The position numbers and the translations under genes were made by a program. Of a DNA stretch of 64,000 bases, positions 1 to 60,495 are shown in pieces. Where the stretch lies: contig FN649748.1 in NCBI GenBank assembly GCA_000310025.1, positions 2,579,266 through 2,643,265 on the forward strand, given 5' to 3'. This DNA is from Ectocarpus siliculosus. Its lineage: Eukaryota > Sar > Phaeophyceae > Ectocarpales > Ectocarpaceae. The notes beneath the pieces were generated by a model that had not been told where the DNA came from, did no database searches, and saw only the letters and a list, made by a program, of their open reading frames with translations. Position 1 is the first letter of the stretch; every line of letters starts with the position of its first letter.

Positions 1-3000
1 AAAGAGCGGAGACAAGGCAGGGCAACACCACACACGCCCCCGGTGTACTCCTTACGATCAGTATAAACATCAGCCACCCAACAGACAGAAATATATAAAC
101 TCTGTCTGCCCCCCACTACCGCTGATAAAAAACCACACCTGGTACCACCGGCTTGTTCATACTGAAACCACGAGAGAACCCCACAAGGCCCCATCACTAT
201 TATTATCGCCATTCGGCGAAAAACCCGGGCCACCAAAGAACAACCCATTTTCTCGTCTCTCGCTACTCTCTGTTCCCCTGACCTTCCCATCGCATTGCAG
301 AAAACACACACATACATGTCACCAGGACCCCACACACACATAATTAATCATCATATAATGTATATGCATGCATGCGTGTCCACCAATCAATCAGACGCGT
401 CACGCACGCAACGGGGAAGCGCGCAGCACCAACGTAGCCACACACAGCAGCCAAAGAGTGCACTCCCCCAACCATGCAACGGTCCGATACCCACAACAAC
501 ATGCGTCCTGCATATATATATACAACCTGAAATAAATGCGATATACACAAATCCCACTCAAAAATAAATGGGACGAGCACCCTCGGAACCGCGCCCAGCA
601 TACTATACATACATAGTATAGGCACACGCAACCCCGACTGCGGCTACACAGTGAGTCCCCCCGACAGGCAATCACGTGGCACACAACGCCGCTGCTTCTA
701 TTTCCATGTCCACTGACACCCCCAAAAGCAAGGGTGGGTGGTGGGTGGGAAAAAGAAACGTCACGGCAGAAACAACCCTTGGCCACCACACACACGCACA
801 CACACAAAACACACACACATGCTCTCGCTCGCCCCCGGTAAACACGGCGAAGCGAGTAGACTGAAACCAGAAACCAGCACGCTCGTCCGCTTCCTGCTTT
901 CTGATTGGCCAACGGTTTATTTCTGCCGCTTCTCACAAAACGCAGATAGATTTCCCTTACTTCGTCAGTCAATCTTTCGCTCTTTTAGCATCGACCACGC
1001 TATAATATGCATACAGCAGTATGTACGTGTGTGTAAATAATATGGAATGGTACCCCCCCCCCCCCCCCCCCCCCCCCCNNNNNNNNNNNNNNNNNNNNNN
1101 NNNNNNNNNNNNNNNNNNNNNNNNNNNNNNNNNNNNNNNNNNNNNNNNNNNNNNNNNNNNNNNNNNNNNNNNNNNNNNGTGTGCGAGAAGAAGCGCTGCC
1201 TAGCTATGTACGAATAAGGTGCAACATTCCCTAGTTTGCATGAGATATCACACACAGCCGGGCCGATTCTCCCGGGTTGATCAGTCGAATGGGTAAGCAG
1301 TTAGTGTGTCCAAAATACCGCGAGTGGGCCCCCCCCCCCCCCCCCCCCCCCCTTCTGATCTGTTTTTCTACCTTTGCTTCAGTAGTCCAGTGCAAAGCCC
1401 TTGCGCTTCACGAGCCCCCTTGTGGTCCCTTTTTACTTTTTAGTTTTCTTGACACGACCCAAGGGAATCCATCTCTATTTAAGAAAAGTTTAAGTAAGAT
1501 AGATTATCAATTAATCCATAGCGTCAGCGAAGGGTACCTGCATTTCCACGATTTCCCGAGCTCTTTTTGCTCTCTCTGCTTTCTGGCAAACTAACTGCTG
1601 TGGTCCGTCTCTTTGAGGGGGGGGGGGCGCAAGTAAGTGGTGCCGCGACGGGGAGGGGTAGGGGGTGACAGCTGTGCGCTAATACTTTAGCCATTGCAGC
1701 GGTGCATTCATTTCACATTATGTTTGTCGCCGAGGTGCAGACGTCCACTTCAGTGTAGACTACACGGGATTTGTTTTTTTTCGCCGGTGTCGCGAAAGAC
1801 ATGCTAAAAGCACACCATGTAGATACAGAGAGAGGGGGTCGCTGTTTAGTGCTTGATGTGCCCAGAAAATTCGCCTGCACTATACCGGACCGGCCCTTTT
1901 CAAGGTACTGGCAATGCCTTGGAAATTCAGTGTGTGCCCGCCGAAAACACCGGCACCAGACTATACAGCATTAGCACTATTCAACCGGCACTCAACAGGG
2001 ACCCTCTGTAGTCAAGTATTCATCTACAAGGCGCGTACGTACATGGGCCGAAGCGATATTTTGGCGGGGTCCCTTGTAGTTTTCGTCACACGACTGAGAG
2101 GACGCCCCCATGTTCAGCAAGAGCTGTGCTATGACCTGTGGTGTTGCTCCACCCGGTGAGTAAATGCCAGCGCAGAGGCATATACAAAATCCAATTAACA
2201 AGAATTGGGCTTGGAAGTAGTCACGGATGGACTACAGAACATCGTCTTATCACGTCATCAAACCATAACCTTTAGCGGCGTCCTGCCCATCGTCGCGACA
2301 TGATTGGCTGAAAGGATCACCCAACCCATCCACACTTCACACTAGGGTGCCATCCCCCCTAGTTGAAGTGGATGAATCCGTTCGAACTTGCGACTAAAGC
2401 TGGAGAAACGTATCACGGGACGAAAATCAAGCACTCGACAAATAATGTAAGCTGGAAGGCAAACAATCCCCAAGATCCAAAGGCGATCAACATCGATTGT
2501 TCTGGGCATAGACACCCCTCCCTATATATTGTTCGCTACAACGTCATGCCCCGCACCCTGTGCTCATGGAAATGATACGCTGGAGCTTGGATCAACGCCG
2601 TGCCAAAAACTCAGGTACGGAACGAACTACTTGTACTTTGTATCGGGCTGTTGAGTTCTGCCAGCCCCGCCAAACAGAGAAGCGAACAGCTCCGAAGGTT
2701 CCATCGGGGGTGCCTCATACTCCTGTCACAGAGACGCATCATCGACGCACGAAAAAGCGGCAACCATTGAGCGTGATGGAGCAGAAAAAAGAGCGAGTTC
2801 AAGCAAGCAAGACGCCCGCGCACGACTACACTGCAGCTGTGCGGATCGCCACAGCCCTAAATTATACGGATACACAAACTACCGCAAGGCCAGAAGTGGG
2901 TCTTACTCGTAGAGCAGTTCGGGGATCCTCCCGGCAGGCAGAACCCACCTCACCGGTCATCGACCCCTCTTGATGCGCGCAACTCCGAACGTTCCCAGCA

Positions 3001-3033
3001 GAGCAATCAAGAGCACCGCAAACACAGACACCG
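1..3033. other. Spacer downstream of the AATF gene; no gene supported
   Basis: No reading frame here shows a recognisable domain or a chain of phase-compatible exons. The left part is rich in CA/ACAC simple sequence (about 780-830) and holds an assembly gap flanked by a 27-base C run. Further C and G runs lie near 1329-1352 and 1616-1627. The 3' untranslated region of the AATF gene presumably lies at the right end. The last AATF coding exon may also be in this stretch, but no convincing candidate was found. Confidence 0.5.
1079..1178. other. Assembly gap (100 N)
   Basis: Exactly 100 N follow a run of about 27 C. A round 100 N usually marks a gap of unknown size. The adjoining C homopolymer suggests the reads failed in low-complexity sequence. 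Confidence 0.95.
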
Positions 3034-6000: not shown

Positions 6001-9000
6001 CCTGCCCACTATAATAGCAGCCAGGCTCGGAGGAACAGAACGGGGGTCACACGTTAGGAGACGTCTGCAGACCCGAGAAACGGTACCCGCACGGGAGCGA
6101 GCGACGTCACCGCCCGGGAAAGCACGCCCCCCCCTCCACCGATTGCTGTGCATCTTTCTTCGTAGGATTCCGCGCCGAAAATCGCTGGTTATTCCAGCCT
6201 TACGAGACAAGAAGGACGGCTGTGCTGCTAGCTGTGCTGTATACTCTCGCCGGGTCACCTGGCAACTTGTTGGCTGCGTTCATGAGGCGCTGCAGCAAGA
6301 TTCGGACCTCGAGCAAGCTATCCCACCACTCCCGCTGCCTGAACGAGCAAGAGCGGAACACGAAGAGACCGTGACAAAAAATAAGGGGTATATGGTAGGC
6401 GAGCGGGGGAAGAGCTTTAGTGGGGAGAAACGACACCAAGAAACGACAACTCTTCCGGTCTTTCGTTCGATATCTAACCGAGGCCGGCGAAAGAAGCGCT
6501 CTGCTGGTTTGATCAAATCGGGATCCACCGCCAATACCAAATGGACCCTCTGTGGGGAACAAGACCCGCGTGCGGTCTGCAAACTTCAAAGCTCACCTGA
6601 GTGCCTCCCTGGCTCGCCGAAGCTCTCCCTGTCCCGCAATACCCCCGCCGTCCCTCCTGGCCTTCTCATCTTGTTCGTCAAGCTGCTTCATCTGCTCCTC
6701 CACGGAGGCACCCGTGTCCACGTCCCCCCCCCTCACACCGGCAAACACGCTCGCCTGCTGCTGTCTTTGACGCTTGCCCCCGCCCGCTCCCCCACCCCCT
6801 CCGTCCTCTTCGTCCTCCCGCCCACCCCAGTGGACGCGCTTCCCTGCTCCCTGCCCGCTTCCTCGTTTCGGCGGTGACGACGCAGTCATGTCGCCATCTT
6901 CGTCGTCCTCGTCTTCCTCACCCTCCTCTGAGGAGCTAACATCGTCAAGGTTCAATGATGGCACCATCTTTCTTGAAGAGGACGCCGCTGTTCCGTCCCC
7001 ACTCTCACTAATGTCGCCATCGTCGTTGCCGTCGTCGTCAGAGCTGCCGTCGCCCTCCGAAGCCTGGTCTGGATCGTGTGCGTCTCCTGTCGCGGCAACC
7101 GAAGCAGAGTTATTCCACTTTTAGTGCTGCTGCAAAGGTGTGGATAGCTCAGGTTGATTGGGAATGGAACCAAAATGCTCCCTGCCTCACGGCACCCCCC
7201 TATCAGTTAAAGGTGTCTTGATTTCTCCTTCATCTTTTCTTGTGCTTTCGATTCGGTGCACTCGAGACATTGAAATAGAGAGGGAGGGGTCTCTCCTTTG
7301 AAGGGACGAAACTACAGCAGTACAAGGTCATCATAATACTTGATGAAAATTAAAATGAGCCGCGGAGCGCGAAGCGCGACATTTTTCCTTTTATCTTCGG
7401 GAGGGAGAAAAAGGCTCTACATATTTGGCTCTTCCAAACAACGTGATGGAGGGGCCCTCCCGCAATTTCCACCTAATTCTGGAGCGCCCGAAAATAATCG
7501 CCTTTGTTCGACCGGAACAAGGTCTATAGAGCACCCATTTACAATCTGCCGGCTTGTGAGGAGGGAGCAAGTTAGGGCATTCTTCGTCACGCTGGGTTGG
7601 TCGCGCTCTAGCAACAGATGGCCGTCCTCGACAGGAATTCCTCCCCAAAATCATGAGAGATTTTTACCCCTTTCCCCGTGGCATTGTAGAGGTAATGGAG
7701 GAACAAAAAAATCGGAGATCTCCCACACACACACGCAGTTGCTTGGTTCAAACCAGGATAAACAGAGCAAGCACTCAGCTAAAACACGCAACGTCGCAAG
7801 GAGTGGCAAGACGGCACTGGCAAGGGAAGGGATCCATACAACGGCGCAGCTACTCACGGGTAGTGCCATTTCTCTCTCAAGAAATACGGCGCGAGATGAG
7901 GTGTGGGAGTCGGACTCTGAAGTTCCTACAGCAATATTTGAACATCCGTGGGCGCCTTTTACCGCCAAAGGGGGACGACAGAACTCCTTCTGGGAACGGA
8001 CACATTCCCTCGTTCCTCGTGACAATAATTATAATTTACGGTTGGTTCTACAGCAGTATTAAGTGCAGTCTAGCCTCACCTACTGCTGTTGCTTCGAGGC
8101 TCTTCCTGGACACCCGCTTGCCGTGGTACTCCTGCCCGATGCTCTCCATGTCGGCCGCCACGCGAAGATCCGCGGAAGGGCGGTGTTGGTTCATCTTCGA
8201 GTCGCCTCCCTCGTCATAGTTGTCGTCATCGTCGTACCTTTGAAGGCCTGTTGGTCAAGACATTTCCGCAGTCCAGTGAGAGTTTTGTGCATACAGTACT
8301 GCTGCTGTACAGCCTGCGGTTTGTTCCCCACTACTGGTGTAGCAGAAGGATGGAAAGGAAGAACGAATCCTGAAGCAGCTCTTGTCAACACGGAACATTT
8401 ACCTGCTTGCAGTGCTGTGTCATGTACATGACATTTCTTCGCACTGGATGAACTACTGCTGTACAGCATGGACTACAGCCATCACGCAAGCGCTGCATAC
8501 TACCTCTTATTCTGAAAGGGAACCTACCTGTTTGTGCTGTGCTAGTTGTACTGCTTTTGACATTTGCCAAGATTCAGTGAGCGAACAGGCATAGGTCACG
8601 CTTCCGTGCTATTGTATCCATGAAAATCCGCAGTCCTCCTACCGGTTCGTGTACGACACTAGGTACGTCACTTCGACTTTGATGTCTGGTATCGGTGCCT
8701 TTAGTAGGGTATAGTGTAGACTTGCAGACGACATGTAGATGGGTTTGGTTCGGGGTGCGAACCACCAATCAGCTGCTGTAGACTGCTGCACTGCTGTCAA
8801 CACGGCACCCATATAAAACGAACGCCTCATCTAATCTCCAATATAAAACCTGCATAGTTCATGCAGCTGCTCACTAAAGTCATTGATGTCTTACAAGGGG
8901 TACAGGCAACATAGGAGAGTCGCATGTTGACTCCTAGACTATACTCGACCAACCAACCTCCCGTGTCCCACGAGAGAGTGGAGAGGGTGTTACTCGAGCC

Positions 9001-9326: not shown

Positions 9327-11149
9327 CGAGGGAGACAGCAGCGGCCAGGAACGAGTCACCCGATCAGTGTTGCAGTGTTGCGGCTGCCAGCCAGCGGAGG
9401 GCGGAGGACGGAGGTGCCTCTCATTTTTTTTTTATCGCGGTTCTCGAGGCATTTCACATCAGGCGGCAGGATGGATTACGGTTCGGCATCGGAGAACTTG
9501 GCCGAGACCTTCGGACTTCGGACCATCGCCATCGGAGATCGGAGATCGGAGACTCGGAGACGTTGCCCGTTGCCCTTTGCTCCAGCACCGCGCACGCCAA
9601 TCGATCCCGAAGCGCGAAGCTGCTGCAAGCTCGTCCACGAGAACTTCGGTTACTTCTGTATGTACACAGTTAGGTGACACGACAACAAGATACCACAACC
9701 TTGACCGATTTTCAAAGCTCGATAATAACTCCAAGACGAAGAGGGTGCCAAAATCAAACATGTTTTCGGAAAGATCTCGAAGAGACGGACGGTTCCGCCA
9801 TTATTTGTACTGCTGTGGAGTAATCGAGCTATGGAAATCGGTCCAGGCAGGGGGTGCGACAATATCTTGTGTATGGTGTCGCCTACGGTGTGGTTTGGGC
9901 TCAGCGAGATGAGGCTCACACATCTTTCACCCTCTTCCTTTCATTGCTCCGCACACACTGATCACGAAGGTACGTTTTGGTCTGCAAGGGTCCCCCCATC
10001 CCCACGCCAAAGGACGGCTGCACCTTTTCTAACGGGCCGACGTTGGCCTTGTGGGTTGACGTTCGACGCGGCCGCACAGAAACATGATGTTTGGTGGTGC
10101 TGGGAATGTCTAGCCGAAACTCCCAGTCTCCATCGTTTCGCGGTGCAGCCGACGATACATCCACCACGAGTGGCCAACTCGACACCTTTGCAACACGTAG
10201 GTGGGTCCTTTCCTTCCAAGCAAAATCTCTTGGCTAACCTGCAGCGCATCTTGATTGCCCTACGTCTAGTTCTTTGCTCCCCCGCCACGCCACTCAGCCC
10301 CTTTTGAAGGAACAAAGTGATTATTATCAAGTCTAAACCAAAATAACAAAAGCAAGCAGATTACGCAAGTGGGGGGCAGGAAAAGAGAGAGAGAGAGAGC
10401 GACATGAACCCACTGTTTCTCATGCTCGCCGTCCTCTCCTGATATCTCCACAACAAACTCCGCGGGGGTAACACTGCTCGTGAGGGTATGGAAGGAGGGA
10501 GACCTTGGCGTGGTGAACTGCCGTTCTTTCTTTCACAGCGTCATCCACACGAACGCGCGTGCTGCGCGCCGGGTGGATCGCTGGCCAACCGGAATACTCA
10601 CACAAAACACAAAGGAAGAGAAATAAGACTGAGACAGAATGACAAAAGGGGGTGAAAACACAAAAACACAAAAAAAAAAAACAAGGAGCGGACGCGACTC
10701 GCAGCTATACTCGTCATTTTCTCGGATGGCATCATGGCAGAGCGGAGACAGGAAAACGCACACGCATACAGCAAGACGGCAGCGAGGCGACTCGCGAGCA
10801 AGCCGTACATAGCGCGCAAATTACGGCGCCGCCGAGGAGGAGGACAAAAAGCGGAAACCAGGTTCCCCCAACCGTTTCAGACATCTGCAGCTGAACCCTA
10901 CTTGTCGCGCGCCACAACTATCGCCATCAAGCACGAGGAAGCATCACGCAGTGCATCTGCTACTTACTGCTGTAGGATACAACCGTTCAAGGCTGTGCAG
11001 CAGCAAAACCACAAGACAGCCAAGCAGCGGTTGAAAGCCCCACTCCCACAAAGCCACCGACAAGATCTCTTCGCGATGGACGCGTCACGATATGACACGA
11101 GCCAAGGAAAACAGCTCGACCCACAAGACCACAACAGGTCTATCTACGC
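9327..11149. other. Spacer between AATF and eRF1; no gene supported
   Basis: This 1.8-kb stretch separates two genes on the same strand and should contain the eRF1 3' untranslated region and the AATF promoter. It contains short repeats of GGAGATC (9533-9556), a (GA)n tract near 10384-10400 and one copy of the dispersed 10-mer described in the findings (10965-10974). No open frame shows domain similarity. Confidence 0.5.
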
Positions 11150-17100: not shown

Positions 17101-19621
17101 CATGATAACTGTATTGGTGTTTGATCGCTCAGCCAGTTCTTGCTATTCACACGACGCATTTTGCGTTCAATCTCTTCCTTTCATTCTTTGACATCCTCGC
17201 GATCGGGGTAGGTATTACAGGCGGTAGACAACACAACACAACCAACAGCTTTGCAATACACTTTCAACAATATTACTCGAGTCCACATGCTGATTCGGGC
17301 TTGTATGCATACACCAGACACTACTGCTGCTATGGACACCAACAACGAAACCATAATCGCTCAGCCAGTTCTTGATATTCACACGACACGTTTTGCGTTC
17401 AATCTCTTCCTTTCATTCTTTGACATCCTCGCGATTGTACGTTGAAGCAATGGTGAACGTTGCACAAACACGCCAGCAATCAGCACGCACAAACATAAGC
17501 AAAACGACGACGACGTTGTGCAACACACAAAACAAGAAGCGCTAGTTCGAAGCACATGGCAGTCGAACAAACTCCTCAGACAGGCGATTGAAACAGTTGC
17601 ATTTCTACCTGTATGCTACCGCGATTTTTCGCCATTGGACCCATGACAACAATGTTCTCGCCGACCGTCCAGTTGTGTCTCCCACTTGAGCTCCCTCTTG
17701 TGTGCATGGAGACAGCACCAGAATTGTTGCCCGAGGTCTTCACTCCCCAGCACGCACACTGACAAACCGCCCGAACCGAACTCTGGAACACAAGACGCGG
17801 AAAACACGTCCAACAGCAGTAAAACAGTCCCCTCTTCCTCTTCTTCTCACTTGAGCCTCTGCTGTGTGGATGTGATGGCCGACAGCACGGACAGCTTGTT
17901 TACCCGGGACTTGATGTTGGTGGCAGTGCCGTATTCGTCCGCGAGCATCTTGCCAACTCTCGCGATCTGACGCCAGACAGGCAACAAGAGCACAACAAGC
18001 AAACGAGCGAGGGAGAGAGGAGAGGTCAAGGAGGCAATAATGGAAACCAGTAGACGAGAGAGAGAGAGGAGAGGTCAAGGCCGGAATGACATGAAGCCCA
18101 ATAGGTCTTCGGGAGCACCCCTCTGTGAAGCGTAAGCTTTCAATGACAACCAATGGTGGCCAGATGCATAGCACCATGATAATATGCTGCCACAATCCCC
18201 CACGCAACAGTGCAAAAGCTGCAGCGTAAAAGCAGAGACACTGGCAACAGCTACAAGATAGTAGTGTAACTGCTGAAAGAAACCAAACGATAGCAAGTAC
18301 TAAACCAACGGTAAGTGAGGATTGGAGAACTACCCCAACATTCAACGAAGGGTTCGGACAATGCACAAAGTGGCGAGGGAGCAAACCAAACGACCGCCTT
18401 CGACGACACGCAGGGCAGTAAGCCAATTTGCCGTGTTGACCCATTCGCACCTGGTCACCCGGCGGAATAACCAGCGAGATCATGCTCGTTCCATTTCTGT
18501 CGAGCATCGACGATAGAGAAGCAGACGATAGCGCAGGAACATACACGTAAGAACAGGGGGGAAACAGAGCAAGACGTTCCGTATTGTGCCAGGGTAAAAC
18601 CTGTGAAATACCGTCGTCTCTCTTGTTGCCCGTGGGAAAGGCTTGCTAGGTCGGCGGACTACAAGCCGTTCTCAACATCGCGGTATATTGAAGGTGTCTG
18701 AAGAAGGTACTCTTTACCGATTCGGGTTTGGAAGTCCCCAAGTTGCCTTGACAGGGTTCCCAAGAGTCCATCAACAGGTTTCGCTCAACGTATGTGTGGG
18801 GAGGGGGGATGCGGGAAGGCGCGCGCGTGGGGGGTCCTCAACGAAGACCTCTGCAAGCGTGGAGTATTTGTGTATGTGACATCTCAAGCCGGAGATGGTG
18901 AAACACACACAATACAATACAGCAGTATGACAGAAGGACAAAACCAGACAACACAAAAACGCGTCTGCTCGTTGCGCAGAGCGTTACGGCAGTAGGGGCG
19001 AGAGAGGCGGATGGTGAGACGGGAAGGAATAAGACCAGACAGCAGCAGTGGTTTGCCACTGCGGTACTGGGTACCGGAAACATGCTCCGCAGATCATCCT
19101 ATAATATTGCTGGCTCGGGTAACGGCACCACCGGGGCGGGCGGGCGGGCGGTACAACGCCCAATTTATTTTCGGCGTACACGGAAACCGAAGCCAGACTT
19201 GTCGAGAATTGGCAAGTATTTAGGGGACGGGACGACGGGGTGAGGCGACCGGCCGTTCCCGAATGCGCAGGTGCCAGCCATCAACCAGCACGTGCTGTGG
19301 TCAGCAGGTCCGCAAGGAGGCACGTGAGGAGCTTAACGAAATGACGCCAATCGCACGAGAAGAGGACAACCAAACCACGGCAAAAATCGCAGCGCCAATG
19401 GAACCACGAAAACTGGCAGCACCAGCGACTGCAACATCAACATCGACCGACAACAGTACCACAGGGGAAACAAAAAGCGACACCAACCACTACGACAAGA
19501 GTATAATATTATAGTCCGCTCACCCGCGAGCCTTCTGCAGGGACTTGATCAGCTTCTTCACCTTCCAGATCTCAACCTGCCTGTCCCCCTGGTCCACCTC
19601 GGGCATGCTCTTGTGAGACAT
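11150..19621 (-). CDS. ETF1: Eukaryotic peptide chain release factor 1 (eRF1), 12 exons
   Basis: eRF1 recognises all three stop codons in the ribosomal A site and triggers hydrolysis of peptidyl-tRNA together with the GTPase eRF3, in the cytosol. Exons are 19621-19524, 18496-18451, 17966-17851, 16651-16498, 15592-15504, 15213-15093, 14790-14692, 13630-13496, 12791-12649, 12237-12177, 11721-11588 and 11279-11150. All phases match, giving 441 residues against about 437 in animals. The stop-codon recognition domain shows GNGTSMISL, the NIKS motif at residues 65-68 and the YxCxxxF motif (YLCDNKF, 129-135). The GGQ peptidyl-tRNA hydrolysis motif lies at 187-189 in [17 protein letters not shown]. 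The C-terminal eRF3-binding domain ends with [20 protein letters not shown] and an acidic tail. All three motifs have the standard form, so standard stop-codon use is expected. Introns make up about 84% of the gene. The start Met precedes [13 protein letters not shown], the conserved N-terminal helix. Confidence 0.98.
13911..14116. repeat. Tandem duplication, period 116 bp, in an eRF1 intron
   Basis: Copy 1 runs 13911-14026 and copy 2 starts at 14027 with TAAGATTTAATTACACCTTG. The copies differ by a few substitutions. Both contain GGTCGGAATATCCGATGTCG and are bordered by GCGCAACAC. The repeat lies in the intron between exons 7 and 8. Confidence 0.9.
14171..14407. repeat. Imperfect inverted repeat with arms of about 60-70 bp
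   Basis: The left arm (about 14171-14228) starts GGTGGCCAGAGGGCAGGTTG and contains AACTACAACCTGAGGGGGGG. The right arm (about 14337-14407) is its reverse complement with small indels and ends CCTGCCGGTGGCCACC. The spacer is about 110 bp. The two arms could fold into a long hairpin. It sits about 55 bp from the tandem duplication, in the same eRF1 intron. Confidence 0.85.
16010..16119 (+). repeat. tRNA-derived SINE-like element
   Basis: The segment resembles a decayed tRNA. It has a D-arm-like GGTAGTCTAGT, the anticodon-side string TATCCTCGC, and a B-box/T-loop GGGGTTCGAATCCCGG, followed some 20 bp later by an A13 tail. The acceptor stem does not close, so it is not a functional tRNA. A related copy lies at 58905-59012. 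It is located in an eRF1 intron (between exons 4 and 5). Confidence 0.65.
16740..16801. repeat. Two-copy tandem repeat, period about 30 bp
   Basis: GACGAAGAGAATCAATCGGA occurs twice in succession, each time preceded by GCGGTGG(C/T)A. It lies in the eRF1 intron between exons 3 and 4. Confidence 0.85.
17123..17229 (+). repeat. Dispersed repeat, copy 1
   Basis: The copy begins GATCGCTCAGCCAGTTCTTG and contains CTCTTCCTTTCATTCTTTGA. Similarity to the inverted copy at 28921-29022 continues to about 17229. The translated frame AQPVLAIHT...[14 protein letters not shown] is preserved between these two copies, which suggests either a decayed coding fragment of a mobile element or recent common origin. 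Confidence 0.85.
17355..17437 (+). repeat. Dispersed repeat, copy 2
   Basis: This is a shorter copy of the 17123-17229 repeat in the same orientation. It runs from ATCGCTCAGCCAGTTCTTGA to CATCCTCGCGATTG, after which similarity stops abruptly. Confidence 0.85.
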
Positions 19622-22600
19622 CTTGCAAACGCCAACAAGCAGGCACGGACAAGCCTTCTCTCCAGGCTAGCGCGGCCCGCTGCCGTCGCTCACTCCCGCC
19701 CCTGCTGCTGCTCCTTTTCGTTTGCCCCTTCTCCGCTTTCCTCTCCCTGTACCCCCTCCCCCCTCCCCCCACCAACAAGACGCCTCCGTTCTTGTCGTGG
19801 CGAAGCAAGCCCCTGCTGTGTCCTGCTAGCAACCATTTTTTAAGGCACCACACCAGGATAGGGCGAGGTGGGGGGGTCAGTCAGTCGTTCCTCGCTGAGT
19901 CTTACAATTACGGGTTCATCGAACCCGTGCATCAAGGGTGAGCTGTGTAGGTGCATCCTCACAGCAGTGATAGCTAGCACTGTGCGTAGCAAGGGTGAAG
20001 GGATGAATCAAGATATCGCATTTTCGGTTCCCTGTGGAGGTCTCTGCCGTGTTTTGATGCAAATATAGAGACCTGCACACGTGTTTGCACGTACCGAGGG
20101 CTCTCTCGCCTTTCACCAATACAAAAGCACCGCACTATTGGTGTTCATGATACGTACTCCCACACCACCCTCGGAGCGCAAGAGTATGTAAGAGTCGACA
20201 ACATGACGAAAATACACCCTCAGCCTTTGGTGGCCAGCTTGACAGACGGGCAAAGAGACGGAGCTACACTTGCACATGCGCCTTCGTATGCTACACGCAA
20301 TCGGCAACAGGAAAAGGATGAGATGCGAATGATGGCCCATCATCTACCACGAAGAGAGCGATGGTGTCAGGAGGAGGGAGTGAAACCAACTAAATTTCTT
20401 CTGATCCATCACAGGGATTCGCAGTAATCCAAGACTGTCTCGCTATGGTAGGGTCGACCTGGGTGTACCTTCCTTGCACCACGGCTTTGATGATCGTGAT
20501 CATCTACATGATCTTCGAGAGACTGGCATTTTTCAAGAAGAGGGGCTACTTGTATACTCGGGAGTATGGTATTCTACAATTGATCGACAAAAGTGTGCGG
20601 ACCGGTGCCCAAGGTGCTACTGGCGTCGCCTGCTTCTCCCAGAAGTGAGGAGAGACAAGGAGCCAAAAGGCATCGATCGACCAGCAACCACAGCACACAC
20701 ACATGGGAAACGCGCGACAGAGAACTACAACAGGAGCTGGCAGAGGCAGACACAATAGGAAGCCCCCCACTGCTGAGACGTCCGTCGTTATTTTTACAAA
20801 AAGTTTTTGTTTCTCCGGCGGCGTCAACGCAAGGTCACAGCAGGTGTCCCTGCCCCAAGCTGCAAGGAGAAGCTTTGATTCCTACACGTTCAACACCAGC
20901 GCACACACCACGTAAATCAGCGGGTCCACGCCGACACCGACTCCCCAGGATGTTCGAGAAAAAAAAAGCCAGGTGAATACGGAGAAACTGGAAAAAACTT
21001 TCCACCTCCCCAACCGCTTTCCCCGTCTCCGACACGCCAAGCAACAGCTCCGTCTCTATCTCTCTCTCTCTCTCTGCGCGTTGCCGCAGCAGCAGCAGCC
21101 GGCCGCACTTCTTCTGTCAACCTCACCTTTTCCGAGCAGATCTAACACACCGGTTCTTCCAGTTTTCCCGGAAGAGGCACGCGCGAGGTTCCACCGTTCT
21201 TCAGCTGCAACGTGTCGCCAGGGGGAGGTAGAGGCTAGATAGGGTGGTTCCGCGGCGGGTGTGCGCAAGCAAGAGCGAGAGTGAGGCAGAGCAGGGGCAG
21301 GCCTTGTAATGACCGTAAACGACCAAAGGGGGGCATCGCCAACAGGAACATTTCAGGGGGAGGGGGGTGCTAAATGACAACCCCCCGCCACAGCTGGCTA
21401 GGCCGGAGGTCCGAGACATCAAGCCAACCAATAACAGGAGCAGCACGAAGCAACCAGACACGGAGCACACATAGCAGCGAGCTACGTGTTGAAGCGAGGC
21501 GTGAGTTGTATTGTTGCGTCATATGCGGCATGCGTTGGTGTTGCGAGCTTGTGGAACTATTTTGCAGCTGCGGTTTTTTGGTGCATGTTACCCCACGAAA
21601 ACAGAGTGACGTTGTGTTATAATAGCACTTTTCGTTGCAATGGGTTGGCAGGTACACCGCAGTACGCTTTGCTCTTCAAATACCCACCACCCACCAGGGC
21701 ACCCAGCTGTGCAGGACCTTAGCTCTATCGTACAATACGCGCTGGCCTGCCAATGTTACAGGGAGGATCTGTAGAATACAAGTCCGTTCAATACCGGCCA
21801 CCATGTAGGCAAGCTACTGCTGTAGACACGTGCCGAGAGCTGGTTGCTCCTATTCGACATGGTACATATGTTTTAGATGGTCTGATGTTGCAGGAACTCT
21901 CGAGTGCTCTTGTCACTGCTGTATCATTGCTGTATCACTGCATGAGCATACGAGCAATGGGGCTTGACTGGCACTGATTGCCACCCTTCGGATCCTGTTG
22001 CTTATGCACATAGTTTCTTCCTTCGATTTTGGCTTCCTTGCATGTCAAAGCTGACACATGGTGTGCCGGGTTGAGGCGGCGTTTGTTCCTTTTATGTATA
22101 CTGTATACACACATCACACATGCCTCAAGAGTCAACACATGCATGTGTATGTAGCATAGACAACTTTACGCCTTTCCCTGCTGCGCACGTGTGCAACGGC
22201 GAGCACGGAAATTCAAGCGGCGGCAGCGGCAGCGGCCGATGGATCAAACCTACCGCCGTAGCACGCCCTCCATGTTACAGGGTGTTGGTCGACACCCTCG
22301 GTACCCCGAGCCGAGGGTTTGTTGGCCGATCCCCTGTACCCACCGCTATCGACGGTTGCATACGGCTTTTTGCTCGTGTGCATATTGAGAACGATCATAG
22401 TAAATAGTTGGAGGCACGCAACCGTAGTGTATGCATAGCCAAAACACAAACTGGATCATTCAACATGTGCACACGTTACTTCCTGGATCGGCCATCGCTC
22501 GAGAATTTAACTCGAATGTCTTGACAACCAAGCACAGCAGTAGCGGCTATGCCCAATGGTCTCGCTCTTTCTCTCGTGTCTTCCCTTTGGTCTTGATCCC

Positions 22601-22722: not shown

Positions 22723-31694
<8,972 letters not shown>

Positions 31695-34221
31695 TGCACG
31701 GAAGGTGCTCCGCCCCCTCCGAAATACCGCGGGTTGCATGCGATGTCGCACCCACCCCCTGGACCGACTTCCAAGCCTCGGTTTTAGTCTGCAGTAAAAA
31801 ATAGCGACGGGACTGTGCCGATGATAGATGGTGTTGTTAAAAGTGTCTCGTCGAGGGCTCTCCGCAACGAACCCATCATCTGATTTTAGCGCCCTCTTTT
31901 CGTCGTGGAGCAATGCCAGAGGTTTGAGATTCGGTCCAGGGGGTGGTGTATCTTATGTCACCCACGGTGGTGCTGCGCTGGTCGTGACACCTCGGCTGTC
32001 TTGCCTGTCCTCGATTGGTTTGGCTGAGGGTTGTTGATTTTTGGCGAAGGATTGTAGAGGGCGAGAAAACTGGGGAGTGAAGACTTTGAAGGTGTGGACT
32101 GCTGGTGACAAGAGAGGCAACTTTTTCTCGACGCTGCTGACGTTTGTTGCGTGGGAGGTGTCACGCGCGTTTGGTGGAGGCCGTGCTTGTTTCGGACGAC
32201 GATGGCTTTGAGTCGAAAGCCCGGTGCTTTTGGCTCTTGCCACAAGAAGCTTGTGTGACGCCGGAGATAGATCGCGTAGTCGTGGCTGGGGTGCAGCCCC
32301 GCTGGTGATTATAGCTTCGTTGTTCGAAATAGTTGGCGGAAACTAACGCTGTATTTTGTGCGAGTTATTTTTTGTGGTCGTGCGGAGATTGGGAGTATCG
32401 TGCAAGGGAAACAGTAAATAAACAAGCTGTGCGCCTGGCCTTCCGCCGAGTCAACTGCTCAGAAAGCTTGACACAATAAGGTGTGCTGACACGTCAGTAC
32501 GGTGCACTTGTCTCTCCGAACATCTGACCGACCAAGCTTTTCTTCGTCTCAAACGATGTCTTGGTTCCCCCCCAAGTGACATGGTTGCTGCTCCTCTGTC
32601 GGTATGTTTATCGGCGGGTGATGCGTCAAGTCATTCCTTGATTTCATGCGGTGGCGCAACGTTCGCAACGCCAGTGTCTTGCCTTGAGTTTGAGGGGCGG
32701 CCGAAGTCGGTAGAATTTCCCACAAAGCTTCTCTTAACTCGGTTAGTCGACGTCCGACCTGCACTACATGCCGTAGTTTCTCAACAGCATTGCCACATTC
32801 GGCGCCCCGCGTCCTACCAGATTTTCGGGTTACTATTCCCCGCGATGACATGCACGCCGTTGTTGCCGTCGTCGTGCGAGTAGTTTGTCTTCCCCGGAGG
32901 GAGTGCTCCGTGATTTAGTCGATCGTCGTAGCCTGGGCCACTGCTTTCTTTACGATTGATGCCTCCTCGGCGTGCGTACCTCCCAAAAATACTTGGGAGG
33001 TACCATCCTCCTTTAATTTGAGTCGAAGGCCGGGGCTGATTCATAGTCCAAACTAAATGTGATGGCAAAAAGAGTACCCTTGGCCACATGACAGCCATCA
33101 TCGACCTCCACGAGGAGGTAGGTCAACGGAGATACAGCAGTAGATGTCATGCTATGCATACGAGTTGGACGAGCAGAAATAAATAAATGTCGTGCAACAC
33201 CCTACCAACAGAGGGACAGCAGATGCGTCGCACGGAACAACAAGAAAGACGACTCTTGTTAGTCTATGATCCTAGCGTCCCCTTTCAGCACCCACAACAA
33301 CAACAGCTAACCTTCCCGATTAAAAGCTCTGTTGAAAGGGACGCCCATACACAGCAGTCTATTCAGTCTCCCTTCTGCTCCGTTCGTTGTGCGAGGAACA
33401 TGGTTCGAATGCGGATGGGCTCCGCCTCTCGAATCTCCGCCGGAAAAACCCGCTGCCGGTTGATGTTTACATCGGGAAGAAGGCGGCAGACACACACGTC
33501 ATGGACCGGCCGAGTGGTGGTGGTTGGGATGAAGGGGGGGCAGCGAACGAGGGTGTGTGGGTAGGGCATGACATGTGTGCGCGGTACCAGCGGTCATCCA
33601 ACCTTCGATTCTTGAATGAATCCGGTGGAACCTCGCTGTCTACGTCAGGACGGCTGCTTCCTGCAGAACGAATCATGCGCTTAGCCTTTGACGTCCCTGA
33701 GTTGCGAGGAAGCCGTGTGCATCTATGAGCCCGTAGAGGCATTCAACCAATAACGTTCTGAGTTGTTGGTTTGCAATCTCAACTTCATTTGTTTCCAATC
33801 GAAAACAAACAACATGTTCTTACTCTCTTTTTGAATGCCGGGGTGGTTTGCCCTCGCGGCTCAAACCAGCCTCAAAACACGATCAATCATTCCTCTCGTT
33901 ACAAGCGACCATACCATACCTGAACCGATACGTCTGTTCAAATATGCAAGCGTCGGCAGAATGTCGAACATGCCTTTTTTCGCTCGACTATGCACATGTA
34001 CGAGCTGAGCTAGCAAATGTATCTCCTCTCTCCCCAAATGCTCGACGGACCATCTGAATGAGAAGTAAAAATGCTTACACGGGATGCAGGAATCCCTCGA
34101 CTAGAGAAGTTGGAAGGAGAGAATGGCGACCCACCGTATCCGATCCCTATCATGATAATCTTGTCTTGCGGATGCTACGAGTTCGAACCACGACTGGAAC
34201 CGATCGAAAAAATCGGGTTAC
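31695..34221. other. Convergent spacer between the CNNM-type and LRR genes
   Basis: Both 3' untranslated regions should lie here, and possibly a last exon of the LRR gene. A perfect 11-bp hairpin is at 32976-33003 and one copy of the dispersed 10-mer at 33133-33142. A short plus-strand segment at about 33058-33117, reading KSTLGHMTAIIDLHEE before a GTAGGT donor, looks exon-like but could not be connected to anything. Confidence 0.45.
32976..33003. repeat. Perfect 11-bp stem hairpin
   Basis: GTACCTCCCAA (32976-32986) is followed by a 6-base loop and the exact inverse TTGGGAGGTAC (32993-33003). No T-run follows, and its role is unknown. Confidence 0.85.
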
Positions 34222-38481: not shown

Positions 38482-41400
38482 CGTTGCTGATGCTGTTGCT
38501 GTGGCCGCTTGCACCCACCAGGACTGATGGCCTGAAGTGCAGAAGAGGGTATGTAGTCTATATGCGCAACGAGGATACGTGCGAGTCCTCTCATGTGTCT
38601 CCCGACAAAGCAACCGGTCAAGACCAAACCAAGCCCGGTACGAGAGGGTTATCGTGTGGCGGCGATCATAGAGATGCCGACGGTGTCGACTGTAGTCTAT
38701 GATGCTGCTGCTTGGAGTAACGTCGAATCAAACAAAAAAATACTGGTGATACGCGTTCATGCTACTACTGCTGATGTGTGAAGAGATTATACACCCACGA
38801 AGCTTCGAATTTTTAATGATCCGAGTATTGCAGGAGACACAACGTCGAACAACATATACCTACCTTTCGTCTCGTTGTATTGTTGTTTTAGTCGCGATCC
38901 TGAGGTGCAGAGGAGGAGAATGCGGAGGGATTATCCCACCAGACATACGTAAAGAAATAATAAGTAGTGTAGTCTAGACGGCAAGACTATTACAATGTAG
39001 CAAGATTGCAAGATTGCGCACGTCTCCACGTCTTCTCATTGGTCTACCAAAAATATGCGGGGCAATTGCTGTTGTACGAGATGTTTGCGTGTGGCAGAAG
39101 GTGAGACAAAAAAATTCCGACGCACACATCGGTCATACCACGGCACAGATACGCAGCGAGATCTGTAGCTGTTGCCTGGAGGATCGACTGCCATACGGGC
39201 ATAAGGAAGGTAAGAGCATGTACGGGTGCTAGAAGAGGGGGTGGGCGTCAGCCAGTTTGCGAAGCGTTGGCCCCGTACCTGGTATACGTGCAGGGTACTT
39301 ACTTCACTTACCTCATCATCTGCAACAGCTGCTGCGATTCACCATCATCTCCAGCCTAAACTGCTGTACGCACGGATCCCCTATGAAAACTTACAACTGG
39401 TGCTTCCGGGATTGTCTTGTTGTTGCCTGGTTTGGCTCCAGGGCTACTGCTGTAGCTGCGGGTTGTGCGCCTCTCTCTGCGGGTGAAACGCCGGCGTGTG
39501 GGTGTGTTTGTCCCTATTTTATGTAAGTTGTACAACAGCAGTAAAGTCTCTCTCGCTCATCCGCGGTTTCCGTCATGTAGAACGCCCGCCGCTGAAGCCG
39601 CCCTCTCCTCAGTCTCAGTCGGCCAGTCACCAGGGTTGTTAGGCCTGCCTCGCGAAATGGTACGCTCCTACGTAGCTGCTAACAGCGACAAGCAGGTTGT
39701 AGAGCCTCAAGCAGGTTGTAGAGCCTGGGATGGCAAGCCGTGCAGTCGCAAACACGCATGCTCTGGCGCGGCCTCGGCTCGTTGTCAACGTGGGACCGTT
39801 CTCCATCTTGGGCACGTTCTTTTTATATTTTGATGGTATTTCACCACAATAGTAAGGGATGCGTCTCGTGTGTGAAGCACACCTACCCCCGCACGACTTA
39901 TGCGTGCGAGGCCGATGACTATTGCCCCTCCCCCATCAGGACTTGTACTACCGCGAACGTGTTTTCGCTCCAAGTCACATGCGGCAAAACTCGGTGCTCT
40001 GGGTTAGTTATGCACTTGACCATGTTGAGTTGAACATCACAGGAGTTCGTCATCATATCGACCGACATTGGCGTGGGTACTGCTCCTGTAATGACGACAC
40101 ATTTTCAGACCTTCCTTGCGTAAACCCAGCAGTGTTTGTTTGCATCGCGTGTCATGGTTTCCTCGAGTGTTCCCTACAGACTTCCGCGCCGCGAAAGGGC
40201 TGACTATTGTATCAACCTTTTCTGATCTGATTCCCCCATCCCTCTCCGGCTAATCTGAATCTGAATATCTGAATATCTGAATCTTGGTGACGGCGATGTG
40301 TGAATAGAACGGGACGACAAATAACGCGGGAGTGGAAATACGACTGCGCTGCGTATCCAAACACCCAAACTCATCGGCTAAGGTGACCGTTCAGGTGACC
40401 GGCAGCGACAAGGGTTGTTGAGGGAAATAGGGTTTTCCTGTAGCCGCAATTATGACGGGGGGGAGAGCGGCGATCGATTTGACACAAGGATCGGGCAGGC
40501 GCACCGCACGCGCCATAACACCACTGAAAACGCCAGCAACACCTGCCAGACTCACGTCCGTTGTTTGTCAACACCAAGACATCATGCGTGGCGCCCTCGT
40601 CTTCAACTGCCGTTGATGCACTGCTGTTTTTTTTTACACCACACCAACCAATGATCACACATGATAACAACGGGGACAGCAGTAGAATGAGCGCACCAGC
40701 AGCGCCAATGCCTCCAATGCGTGATTCTCTCGGTCCGGCCGTCTATCTCATACTCACCATACAAGTAGGACTTGGTGTGTATTGTGTAATGGGGGCTCGG
40801 GTGCTGGTCGTGAGAATTAAGCGGGAAGATCCGGGGTGTGACACTGCGCCCTGCTCCCGATGCTGAAAGCTGAAAACAGCAGGCCGGGTGGGCAGGGTCT
40901 TGCAATTTGCGTGTGTGCTGTCCTCACTCCCTGCCGGGTGCTACTCTTCGTGCTTGTACCGCTGCTCTATGGTGAGCGAAGCCAGGTGGACCCGTCGTGT
41001 GTCGAGCAAAGAGGGTTTCGCCAAAAGAAAAGAAAACGATGGCATCACGATAGTATCACTACGAGAAATCCTCGGACCCGATCCGTGTTAAAATTAAACG
41101 GAACGGGATATTTTGTTGTTTCGTTTTGGTTTGTTCCGACAGAAACGGGCCTCAAGATGCAGCAAGGTTGAGGATCTCCGCGTTGTGAGCTGTAGAGATG
41201 TGATCCATCATCATGCACAGCAAGCAACATACGTTCTTGTCGTATGGCTTGCAGCGCTGCTATGCAAATGACCGATCATCACGGGAAGACTTTTAGCCCG
41301 TAAGATTTGATCGTACAATATTGTATTTTCGTCGTGCAAATACATCGTTGTATATATTGGCAAGTTTAATTTGTCCCCACCATGATCCATAATCTCAGTT

Positions 41401-41492: not shown

Positions 41493-41556
<64 letters not shown>

Positions 41557-41927: not shown

Positions 41928-41958
<31 letters not shown>

Positions 41959-42423: not shown

Positions 42424-42470
<47 letters not shown>

Positions 42471-45903: not shown

Positions 45904-45948
<45 letters not shown>

Positions 45949-51400: not shown

Positions 51401-52225
51401 CCCACCTGCATGATATTACGGGGCCGCTGTCGGGGTTCAATACGATGGTCGCGTGGCGACAGTATTGACTCAAGGTGCGCGCATTGAATACGGCCGCAAC
51501 CCGGACAATAGCCAGGCTCCACGCGGTGTCCTCGAACTCGCGCCTACTTGCGAGTGCTGTGGAAGGGACAAGTCGGCACAGGCTCGTGAAGTGACAAGCC
51601 GTGTTGGACTCTACATTTATGTTTTTAAGTGACAGCAGGAGATGGGCTTCGGGTCGCGAGAAACGAGCACCCCTTACCTTGGGGTTACCGTATAATGTTG
51701 GTACATACCGCTATGCCGAAGGCACAGAGTAAGGCTACGTACACGGGTGGAACGCTCTCCAAGGGTGCCCTCAGACAATCCAAAAAACGAAGGCATCGCA
51801 CGCAGTATCGAAAATAACGTTGTTGTCGTCGCTGCAGTCAATTTCGCCATCGTCGGATCAAATTTACGCCGGCACCCTTCGGCACCCTCCACCTTAGTCA
51901 CGTCGCTTCACCTTGGTCACGTTGCTTTGAGTACGATCAACGTCGGGTGGTCGCCGGCTATTACCCTCCTTACCTGCTGCAACTGCAACCACCTACCCCC
52001 CCCCCCCCCAAANNNNNNNNNNNNNNNNNNNNNNNNNNNNNNNNNNNNNNNNNNNNNNNNNNNNNNNNNNNNNNNNNNNNCCCCCCCCCCCCCCCCCCCC
52101 CCCCCCCGCGCGAGCGCCGTAAAGGTTTGAAGAATGATCGCGTCACTACACAGTCTAACCTTGGCGTCTGGAAACGGCAAGGGAACCGTGTCCGGTGCCG
52201 CGCCGATCTCCTGGCTGGTGTACAT
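48429..52225 (-). CDS. PP2C-type (PPM) serine/threonine protein phosphatase, 7 exons
   Basis: PPM phosphatases remove phosphate from Ser/Thr using two metal ions held by Asp residues. Exons are 52225-52160, 51405-51252, 50932-50784, 50560-50387, 49811-49629, 49076-48969 and 48539-48429. All phases agree, giving 314 residues from the Met at 52225. The frame is open upstream to another Met at 52378, which would add 51 basic residues; either start is possible. Motifs in order are AKINQDRGCVVYPF, FSVFDGHGEHGDVV (metal-binding Asp, split across an intron), FSGTTAVSVLMRENNLWIAN followed by AGDSRAVL, IGLAMARSIGDHAVKSIGVV with AEPEV, FIVLASDGVWEF (second metal Asp) and YRDDITAVVIRL (third). All catalytic Asp are present, so the enzyme should be active. 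The catalytic domain fills nearly the whole protein, with no added domain and no membrane segment. Intron 1 contains an assembly gap. Confidence 0.97.
52013..52080. other. Assembly gap (68 N)
   Basis: 68 N are flanked by a C run on the left and a 27-base C run on the right, within intron 1 of the PP2C gene. The non-round length suggests an estimated size or masked low-quality C homopolymer. Confidence 0.95.
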
Positions 52226-53541: not shown

Positions 53542-53579
<38 letters not shown>

Positions 53580-56500: not shown

Positions 56501-57152
56501 CGTACAAAACTAATAATGCACTTGGGAGGGGGGGGGTAGCGAGAGAGGGGGGAAATAGCGAGAGATAGGAGGAGCTGTGGGGTGGTTCTTATTCGACCCA
56601 CTCTCCCGTAACACCTCGTTTCTTATGTAGTAGGGCAGCGGTCGCCGATGCTTCCTATTGAGACATTTCTTATTGTGTGACCCAGACTGAGCCATGTTTC
56701 TTAACCCTATTCTCTTATTTTTCGTGGAAAAGTGAGCCTCTACTTATTAAAAAAATATTTCTTAATTGCTGGCGCTAACTGTATCGGCCGTGTCTGATAT
56801 TCGCATGGAGTACTCCACGCTCGCAGAAGAACTAGATCTAGGTATCGTATGTACACTCTGCATGCAACAATTAAAAAAGTAGACTTCGAGTAACACATGA
56901 GTCCTAAATTAACCGCTCTTTTTTTGCAATAATAAACAAGCAAGTTCCACCGGCTTACACTTAAGACTACACATGTAGGCAAGCGTGTTGGTACTTGTTA
57001 TTCGCCTACATACATACAAATGTACACGTACTGCTGTAGACTATGCGAGTTTGGCTTTCATCACATACCTGAAGATGTGTGAGTAGTGCAGCCTTTCCCG
57101 CGTCAGACAGTGCCGGATCTACCCCCCCCGGAATCGATGCCCCTGCCCCCAT
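53061..57152 (-). CDS. Unrecognised multi-exon gene starting MGAGAS (partly resolved)
   Basis: Likely exons are 57152-57069, 55382-55275, 54286-54171 and 53958-53893, plus a last exon 53321-53061. The first three join in phase with good GT-AG borders. They encode MGAGASIPGGVDPALSDAGK, then AEYVAKASGEGADDKSILDS with a charged helix ending VKELEEAE, then KNGSDASDTEIAATAAAF. The fourth gives SNDPLVDLKTLKVERL. The last ends FGRRGAWQDDVELAPISFSR before a TGA. Exon 4 and the last exon disagree in phase, unless exon 4 ends earlier at its internal GTTGAA; another exon may be missing. The N-terminal Met-Gly with Ser at position 6 fits an N-myristoylation signal, so membrane attachment is possible. I do not recognise the family. 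Codon use and the chain of phased exons support a real gene; the exact product is unsure. Confidence 0.58.
53536..53594 (+). repeat. (GTC)n trinucleotide repeat
   Basis: About 15 GTC units followed by GTT/GTC, in the presumed last intron of the MGAGAS gene. The minus strand would read poly-Asp in one frame, but no exon is supported there. Confidence 0.9.
55740..55950. repeat. Degenerate G-rich minisatellite with telomere-like core
   Basis: The units are variations on GTGGGATGG / CCATGGGACG(C)GTGGGACG repeated across about 200 bp. Inside is GGGTTTGGGGTTAGGGTTAG followed by GGTT (55842-55867), an interstitial telomere-like array. It lies in intron 1 of the MGAGAS gene. Confidence 0.8.
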
Positions 57153-58904: not shown

Positions 58905-59012
58905 ACCTGCGGTGGGTATCGCTCCGGTGGTAATAACCTCGCATTTTCTGGCTTTTGGGGACAAGAGCATAGGGTTCGAATCTCGGCGACTTGGATCTTT
59001 TTTTTTTTTTTC
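58905..59012 (+). repeat. tRNA-derived SINE-like element, second copy
   Basis: CTCCGGTGGTAATAACCTCG, a CATTTTCT string and the B-box-like AGGGTTCGAATCTCGGCG match the element at 16010-16119 in order and spacing. This copy ends in a T12 run instead of an A run. Confidence 0.6.
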
Positions 59013-60495
59013 TTAATCATGACACACCTTTTTTCTCCCATCTTGCATCTTCTCTACTTGTTCGTATTAATAGCATACATATTCTAGCATACGACAGGCG
59101 ATGAGAAAGGAAGACTGAGTCCTTCTCGCGATAGTCTGCGCATATGCATACGAATGAACATGAAAGGAAGCGCTGCAGCAGGGATAAGGTAGACACGGCA
59201 ACACCTCCCTCCCGTGTGGTTTACTTGCTGTTGTGTCGAAAACGCCGAGAGCTACAATTTGCAACCTGACATATGACACATGATGGTACAGAGTAGTAAC
59301 ACGATGGCTGTGATGTTTCATCTCTCCGCAAGAAGGAGAATGCATATGCATAATATGCATACAGCAGTAGTCTTTTCTGTGTGTGTACTATCCACAGCAG
59401 TATTTAGTTGCCTTGCCGTAAGAGGAACGCTGGGTGTTCGGTGTTGTTGTGTATTTTCTCCTTTCACCTTTTACAAGGATTGTGGGTGCGGAGACCGCTG
59501 TGGACATTGCTGCCGTCCGATCTCTCCCTAGACCTTCCTGTCCCTCCTGTCCTGTCGAGCTGCGAGGGAACGTTAACCCTCCGACACAAGAATGTACTTG
59601 GAAAATTCGTTACCAATTATCTAGACCCTTGTCTACGATAGACGGACATATATGTTATGTTGTGTTATACTGCTGCTTGTAGTATATACTAGGGGGAGCG
59701 ATTGGCCCCCCGCCCCCCAATGGGGCGGGCGGCCGGCATGCGTGGGATGGATGCGGCGGTTCGATAAGCAGAGGAAGTAAACGCGATGGTGACATCGCTT
59801 CGGAAAAAGCGTACTCGAAGTCGGCTTAGTTAGGTAGACGGTGTGAGGTCGATACGCACGTCCGTCCGTTGCGTAGATCGATCGGTGTTGTGCAAAATAC
59901 GATGAAAACGAAAGGGATTTTTTCGTGGAATGGTCGATACCCGATCACAAAACGTGAATCGGACGGAAGACGGGGGTGGGAATTATTTTGAAGATGGAAT
60001 GGGAAAAAAAAAAAGACGATGCCGTATGAAAGCGAGAAAAGGAAAGGGGCCGTTGTCACCGGTGGCCCTGTATGTGTGGATGAGATTTGCGGCAGTGTCG
60101 TATCCGTCCGTGCGAGTGGTGGTTGTGGCGGGCGAGCTGGCGGACGTAGCGAATCCGTGTAAATCACAGAGGATTGTGAAGAAGTGAACCGCCCCGCCGC
60201 CAGCCGGTCGGGTTCCGGTTACCGTATGGAAGACTTCTCTTGCCTAGCAAACAAGAAGAAGTCTCGAAGAGGGGGGAGTAATGTGGAGACCACCCTTCAT
60301 GAAGAAAGGTACTATTATATCTCCCCAACCTCTGTCGAGGACGAGTCCTTCTTTTCACAGTTAGTTGGGAAATCCGGGAATATAAGGAAGGCCGGTTGTC
60401 GTTTAGACGCTTAGAAATCGATTCGTTGCATATATATCCATTTTATCATGCTCGGACGGGATAAGAGGCGATCAAAGGAAAACTCCCAAACACAG

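What the first reader, a model, noticed from the sequence alone, without database searches (positions are those of the whole stretch)
1012..59369. A perfect 10-mer, TACAGCAGTA, is scattered through the window far above chance
I found the exact string or its reverse complement TACTGCTGTA at 1012, 7313, 8049, 8454, 10965, 18918, 21815, 33133, 39445, 57029 and 59360, in both orientations and in introns and spacers. For random sequence about 0.1 occurrence is expected in 64 kb on both strands. The 8-mer core CAGCAGTA is commoner still. Flanks share little beyond a frequent preceding C. The flanking TA and CAG start recall the ends of TA-targeting Tc1/mariner-type elements, but that is a guess. It could also be a binding site or a structural motif.
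Basis: partly seen in the sequence, partly recalled or inferred. Interest (0 to 1): 0.7.

Follow-up and report, generated by a model that had tools for sequence, protein, structure and literature searches.

The report
Abundant unknown DNA-binding motif in alga
A ten-letter DNA word that recurs about 12,500 times across this algal-type genome looks like the landing site of an unidentified DNA-binding protein, probably a gene regulator, rather than the end of a jumping gene.

Summary
TACAGCAGTA occurs 11 times in the window (0.07-0.46 expected) and 12,540 times in the 189-Mb genome, against 364 for the reversed word. The mariner-end guess fails: among 103 copies of the core ACAGCAGT in 305 kb, flanks are random beyond one base on each side, and only 24% of genomic cores carry TA on both sides. 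The signal is a sharp motif, YACAGCAGTR. Its neighbours differ in a specific way: TACAGTAGTA is 5.5-fold over its control and CACAGCAGTG 8.8-fold, but the mirror transition TACAACAGTA only 1.6-fold. Copies are near background in predicted exons and 12-17-fold over shuffled words in introns and between genes, without gene-strand bias. They are 1.76-fold denser near predicted starts (p=0.025, bins chosen afterwards; shuffled words 1.05-fold). Best reading: the recognition site of an unidentified, widely used sequence-specific DNA-binding protein, most likely a transcription regulator, in a genome I infer to be an Ectocarpus-like brown alga. Seven literature searches listed no report of it. Binding and conservation could not be tested.

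The parts
1012..1021 (+). TACAGCAGTA, intergenic; overlaps TATGCATA at 1006-1013 through the shared TA
7313..7322 (+). TACAGCAGTA in an intron of the predicted AATF/TRAUB gene (gene on -)
8049..8058 (+). TACAGCAGTA in an intron of the AATF/TRAUB gene; a second core on - at 8082-8089
8454..8463 (-). TACAGCAGTA, intron of the AATF/TRAUB gene in the second gene model (upstream of the gene in the first)
10965..10974 (-). TACAGCAGTA between the AATF/TRAUB gene and the eRF1 gene
18918..18927 (+). TACAGCAGTA in an intron of the predicted eRF1 gene (gene on -)
21815..21824 (-). TACAGCAGTA between the divergent predicted starts of the eRF1 (-) and CNNM (+) genes; further cores at 21915 and 22534
33133..33142 (+). 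TACAGCAGTA, intergenic, 3' side of the CNNM gene; TATGCATA follows at 33153
39445..39454 (-). TACAGCAGTA between the divergent predicted genes at 33366-37459 (-) and 41750-44124 (+); four more cores at 39360, 39535, 40620 and 40676
57029..57038 (-). TACAGCAGTA in the most 5' predicted intron of the PP2C gene (gene on -); overlaps TAGACTA at 57037-57043 through the shared TA
59360..59369 (+). TACAGCAGTA upstream of the PP2C gene; overlaps TATGCATA at 59354-59361 through the shared TA; a second core at 59394

Best explanation
TACAGCAGTA is the strongest form that I counted of a short cis-element, YACAGCAGTR, recognised in double-stranded DNA by a sequence-specific protein that is used very widely in this genome, most likely a transcription regulator acting from promoters, intergenic DNA and introns. 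Shown here: the abundance, the sharp edges, the position-specific tolerance, the near-background density in predicted exons, the indifference to gene direction, and genome-wide short-range pairing. Inferred: that a protein reads it, that selection keeps the copies, and that the effect is on transcription. The protein itself is unknown.
For: Abundance: 12,540 against 364 for the 10-mer and 51,927 against 7,247 for the core. Sharp edges: 0.13 and 0.15 bit at the one base on either side, at most 0.04 bit at any of the next 14 positions (103 copies). Specificity rather than decay: single changes at core positions 1-6 (counted from 0) are at or near Markov background apart from C-to-T at position 4, 19 against 7.2. 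Genome-wide, that T form TACAGTAGTA is 2,399 against 440, 5.5-fold, and the A and G forms together are 979 against 563, 1.7-fold (minus), while the mirror transition TACAACAGTA is 855 against 526, 1.6-fold. Outer bases tolerate change: CACAGCAGTG 3,678 against 416. Non-coding: 2 of 103 in predicted exons (0.042 per kb; shuffled words 0.023), 42 in introns (0.31; 0.026), 59 between genes (0.48; 0.028). DNA level: 18 sense and 24 antisense in introns, p=0.44. Near starts: 47 in 80.3 kb from -2000 to +1500 against 25 in 75.1 kb further out to 4 kb, 1.76-fold, p=0.025; 300 shuffled words give 1.05-fold. Pairs within a 0-30 bp gap: 1,158 direct, 475 divergent, 437 convergent, against about 221, 110 and 110 for random placement (my arithmetic).
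Against: No binding, accessibility, expression or cross-species data could be reached. Promoter enrichment is modest, its limits were chosen after seeing the counts, and the exact 10-mer alone gives only 10 near against 7 far. Gene models are my own ab initio ones; of 9 models that one search lists inside the window I gave 6 proteins to Pfam, of which 4 matched a family above its cut-off, one had only a sub-threshold LRR match and one had none. About 45,000 excess cores is a great many for one regulator. The ends of the core are not strictly fixed: GCAGCAGT is 42 against 21.9 and ACAGCAGC 68 against 35.7, and TACAGCAGCA 10 against 1.9; CAG repeats may explain the C forms. Gap-0 pairs that share a TA occur in all three orientations (16 of 100, 13 of 50 and 11 of 50 listed pairs), about 1.6- to 3.4-fold beyond what flank preference and clustering predict by my arithmetic; a binding-site model does not obviously predict that. 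In the 305-kb sample, pairing within 30 bp is at chance (1 against 1.1) and within 100 bp it is 10 against 4.0 (12 of 1000 random placements reach it).
Confidence: 0.62

Rival explanations
1. The same kind of protein-read DNA site, but serving chromatin architecture, replication or nuclear organisation rather than transcription of nearby genes.
For: Copies are spread through introns as well as spacers and show no gene orientation. If the gene number is that of Ectocarpus (18,412 V2 models), there are about 2.4 excess cores per gene. Ectocarpus, my guess for the kind of host, lacks CTCF, and the authors saw no TADs or canonical insulators (PMC11541908, passages).
Against: Mild concentration near predicted start codons; the same paper gives no support for insulators.
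Confidence: 0.15
2. Footprints or ends of TA-targeting (Tc1/mariner-like) transposons.
For: TA on both sides is the commonest flank pair in the sample (19 of 90 cores); pairs that share a TA are over-represented in all orientations; TAGACTA and TATGCATA are also TA-bounded enriched words.
Against: Only 12,540 of 51,927 cores have both TAs. In the 10-mer the outer T and A vary more than the inner A; the inner T also varies to C (10 against 1.9), perhaps through CAG repeats. No shared flanks. Mirror transitions differ, 2,399 against 855, unlike decay. In the one repeat family checked, four alignments at the copy at 9809 differ by substitutions in three (one with a one-base gap beside) and by a 9-bp gap in one.
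Confidence: 0.1
3. A mutational or compositional by-product, such as CAG-repeat slippage or the copies of an unseen repeat.
For: CAG repeats are common here (CAGCAGCAG 111 times in the sample).
Against: ACAGCAGT does not lie nearer to CAGCAGCAG than chance (within 30, 100 and 300 bp: 0, 1 and 27 against 2.8, 9.4 and 27.9); inverted pairs do not come from slippage; flanks are random.
Confidence: 0.08
4. An RNA-level signal (splicing, 3' end, small-RNA target).
For: 42 of 103 copies are in predicted introns.
Against: No strand bias in introns, 18 against 24; higher density between genes than in introns (p=0.028).
Confidence: 0.03

Closest known systems
Genome-wide abundant regulator sites such as Drosophila DRE (TATCGATA) or vertebrate NRF1 sites (recalled)
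   Same: Short sharp word, many copies, non-coding, strand-indifferent, denser near gene starts.
   Different: Binding protein unknown; only mild concentration near predicted starts; core not palindromic.
HIP1, the highly iterated octamer of cyanobacteria (recalled)
   Same: A single short word tens of fold above expectation across a genome.
   Different: HIP1 is a perfect palindrome and frequent in genes (recalled); this word is not palindromic and is near background in predicted exons.
Tc1/mariner terminal repeats and excision footprints (recalled)
   Same: Flanking TA and CAG-like start.
   Different: No extended repeat, no partner end seen, TA not required.

Membership tests
Protein-recognised cis-regulatory site | Sharp position-specific motif with random flanks | tested here: met
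Protein-recognised cis-regulatory site | Non-coding and independent of gene strand | tested here: met
   2 of 103 in predicted exons; introns 18 sense, 24 antisense; gene models ab initio
Protein-recognised cis-regulatory site | Concentrated near gene starts | tested here: inconclusive
   core 1.76-fold, p=0.025, shuffled words 1.05-fold, limits chosen after the fact; exact 10-mer 10 near, 7 far
Protein-recognised cis-regulatory site | Bound by a nuclear protein; conserved between species | not testable with these tools
   no relatives of this genome are held; no binding data
Tc1/mariner end or footprint | TA duplicated on both sides | tested here: not met
   12,540 of 51,927 cores
Tc1/mariner end or footprint | Shared terminal sequence or inverted partner | tested here: not met
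   flank similarity equals random sequence; of 100 left-right position pairs the extremes are z 2.7 for identity and 3.1 for complementarity, scattered
Tc1/mariner end or footprint | Presence/absence of the unit between homologous loci | tested here: inconclusive
   one repeat family only, five alignments across two sites: substitutions, a one-base, a 3-bp and a 9-bp gap
Highly iterated palindrome (HIP1-like) | Perfect palindrome | tested here: not met
   the core is not a palindrome; TACAGCTGTA 394 loci against 190 for its control
RNA-level motif | Orientation bias within transcribed regions | tested here: not met
   introns 18 against 24, p=0.44

The most novel reading that the evidence does not exclude
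A lineage-specific genome-organising DNA element: a word of about 45,000 excess copies read by one brown-algal protein that stands in for the architectural factors this lineage lacks, working together with a small vocabulary of other TA-bounded words (TATGCATA, TAGWCTA).
Probability: 0.12. Interest if true: 0.8.

Novelty: new member of a known kind. Interest (0 to 1): 0.5.

Why it matters
If it is a regulator site, it would be a dominant cis-element of a complex multicellular lineage (inferred brown algae), for which my seven literature searches listed no such motif. It is a ready probe: one pull-down could name the protein, and ranking genes by sites could open part of the regulatory code of these algae. 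If it is architectural, it bears on how a genome without CTCF or TADs is organised.

Tried and rejected
Transposon ends: flank information, left-right identity and complementarity, and best pairwise flank matches gave no clear signal. The largest of the 100 left-right comparisons were z 2.7 (identity) and 3.1 (complementarity), scattered; the two bases that touch the core agree slightly more than expected (z 2.1). Paralogues in the one repeat family that crosses a site: four alignments at the copy at 9809 (substitutions in three, one of them with a one-base gap beside; a 9-bp gap in one) and one alignment at a copy in L024 (3-bp gap).

Footprint idea from TA-sharing pairs: attractive, but in the 10-mer the outer T and A vary most. 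The gap-0 excess is about 1.6-, 3.4- and 2.2-fold (direct, divergent, convergent) beyond flank preference and clustering, by my own arithmetic from the first 100 rows each. I keep this as unexplained.

RNA-level signal: no strand bias. Microsatellite origin: no association with CAG repeats. Partner words: TATGCATA lies within 30 bp of the core 4 times against 0.5 expected (0 of 300 shifts reach it); TAGACTA 3 against 0.8 (15 of 300). The control word TGACGACA also lies near more than expected at 300 bp (7 against 2.0, 5 of 300), so only the 30-bp TATGCATA result is firm, on four cases.

A first estimate from the listed part (about 7.7-fold for TACAGTAGTA) was too high; the direct count gives 5.5-fold, and the report uses that.

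Literature, seven searches, listings only unless said: TACAGCAGTA (51 papers, 20 listed, none on a genomic motif in algae by title); motif, promoter and binding terms with Ectocarpus or brown alga (168 papers, 20 listed, 5 listed, 129 papers, 15 listed, 38 papers, 10 listed); word variants (429 papers, 15 listed); Ectocarpus Hi-C (23 papers, 10 listed). PMC11541908: passages and section 6 read. PMC3597505: main text searched for five fragments, none found. Most listed papers were not opened and most matching papers were not listed, so it is not proven that the motif is unreported.

Dropped rows: the locus that reads wholly N (L013) was left out of gene-model and density counts; L001-L008, fetched because they hold the motif, were left out of all statistics.

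Full report
OBSERVATION. The expectation is 0.07 from shuffles and 0.19 or 0.46 from 3rd- or 4th-order Markov models. The window is bases 2579266-2643265 of contig C23 in a genome of 189,456,909 bases and 492 contigs. Genome-wide there are 12,540 copies against 364 for the reversed word; a 3rd-order Markov model predicts about 480 by extrapolation from a 253-kb sample. The 8-bp core ACAGCAGT has 51,927 copies against 7,247, and all words within one mismatch of the 10-mer 52,841 against 12,078. The reversed word is a rough control, as it keeps base but not dinucleotide content; the Markov figure is the more careful one.

HOST. Not named. Six of the nine gene models that one search lists inside the window were given to Pfam: four matched above cut-off (TRAUB/AATF, eRF1, CNNM, PP2C), one had only a sub-threshold LRR match and one had none. 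There are 39 models of at least 300 coding bases in the sample, many cut by the ends of 10-kb pieces, with a mean of 5.6 exons and a mean intron of 643 bp; G+C is 53.3%. I infer an Ectocarpus-like brown alga; that was not tested.

ANATOMY. I read the window, 20 scattered 10-kb pieces (one wholly N and left out) and 60 kb beside the window: 304,826 called bases with 103 cores. Beyond the core, information is 0.13 bit (T, then C) at the base before and 0.15 bit (A, then G) at the base after, and at most 0.04 bit at any of the next 14 positions on either side. The best flank matches between copies, 14-15 of 25, equal those of random sequence. The motif is YACAGCAGTR, and no longer repeat surrounds it.

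SPECIFICITY. In the sample, single changes at core positions 1-6 (counting from 0) sit near Markov background, apart from C-to-T at position 4 (19 against 7.2). The end positions are looser: GCAGCAGT 42 against 21.9 and ACAGCAGC 68 against 35.7, perhaps in part through CAG repeats. Genome counts: TACAGTAGTA 2,399 against 440, 5.5-fold; the A and G forms at that place together 979 against 563, 1.7-fold (minus); the mirror transition TACAACAGTA 855 against 526, 1.6-fold; the perfect palindrome TACAGCTGTA 394 loci against 190. With both outer bases changed, CACAGCAGTG is still 3,678 against 416. Simple decay of old copies should make mirror transitions alike, and copying from a longer element would leave flanks. 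Neither is seen, which points to recognition and selection.

PLACE. Density per kb is 0.042 in predicted exons (2 copies), 0.31 in introns (42) and 0.48 between genes (59); 300 shuffles of the core give 0.023, 0.026 and 0.028. So the word is close to background in exons and 12- to 17-fold enriched elsewhere. An earlier, cruder gene model on 90 cores gave a similar picture: 0.13 times the mean density in exons and 1.95 times in 1.5 kb upstream. Introns hold 18 sense and 24 antisense copies (p=0.44). From -2000 to +1500 of predicted start codons there are 47 in 80.3 kb of non-coding DNA, against 25 in 75.1 kb elsewhere within 4 kb: 1.76-fold, p=0.025, where shuffled words give 1.05-fold. The limits were set after seeing the counts, and the exact 10-mer alone shows 10 against 7. 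In the window, cores gather between divergent genes: five between 39360 and 40683, and three between 21816 and 22541.

PAIRS. Within a gap of 0-30 bp there are 1,158 direct, 475 divergent and 437 convergent pairs, where random placement gives about 221, 110 and 110 (my arithmetic). Some lie in repeats, since identical spacers recur in the listings. In the small sample, pairing within 30 bp is at chance (1 against 1.1) and within 100 bp it is 10 against 4.0 (12 of 1000 random placements reach it). Gap 0, in which neighbours share a TA, makes up 16 of 100, 13 of 50 and 11 of 50 listed pairs. Flank preference and clustering account for much of this but leave an excess of about 1.6-, 3.4- and 2.2-fold that I cannot explain.

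OTHER WORDS. TATGCATA has 9,559 loci against 1,434 and lies within 30 bp of the core 4 times against 0.5 expected. TAGACTA is 42 against 10.1 in the sample. Both are fairly sharp and suggest a small vocabulary of DNA-level words.

MECHANISM. Most likely one sequence-specific protein reads YACAGCAGTR in double-stranded DNA and regulates transcription from promoters, intergenic sites and introns. Recognition is inferred from the specificity profile, selection from the lack of decay neighbours, transcription from place. The binding protein is unknown. Architectural use is the nearest rival. Mariner ends, footprints, RNA signals and repeat slippage fit worse.

NOVELTY. It is a new member of a known kind. 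Seven literature searches listed no report of it, within the limits of the library and of the listings.

Noticed in passing
window 1002-1021 and 59350-59369: The two copies at 1012 and 59360 share the 20-mer ATAATATGCATACAGCAGTA, a fusion of TATGCATA and the motif through a common TA.
   Followed up: partly
window, e.g. 1006, 12853, 17304, 33153, 59345, 59354; genome-wide: The palindrome TATGCATA has 9,559 loci against 1,434 for its reversed control and is fairly sharp in the sample.
   Followed up: partly
window, e.g. 1756, 8935, 15714, 33260, 57037: TAGACTA/TAGTCTA is enriched about four-fold in the sample (42 against 10.1), most one-base neighbours being near background.
   Followed up: partly
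window 13902-14117: A 117-bp unit in 1.8 copies, 96% alike, inside the predicted eRF1 gene.
   Followed up: no
window 1053-1078 and 52081-52107: Pure C runs of 26 and 27 bases.
   Followed up: no
window and scattered 10-kb loci L009-L028: Telomere-like words AACCCTAAC (11 against 0.64) and CCCTAACCC (10 against 0.64) are enriched in pieces taken from inside contigs.
   Followed up: no
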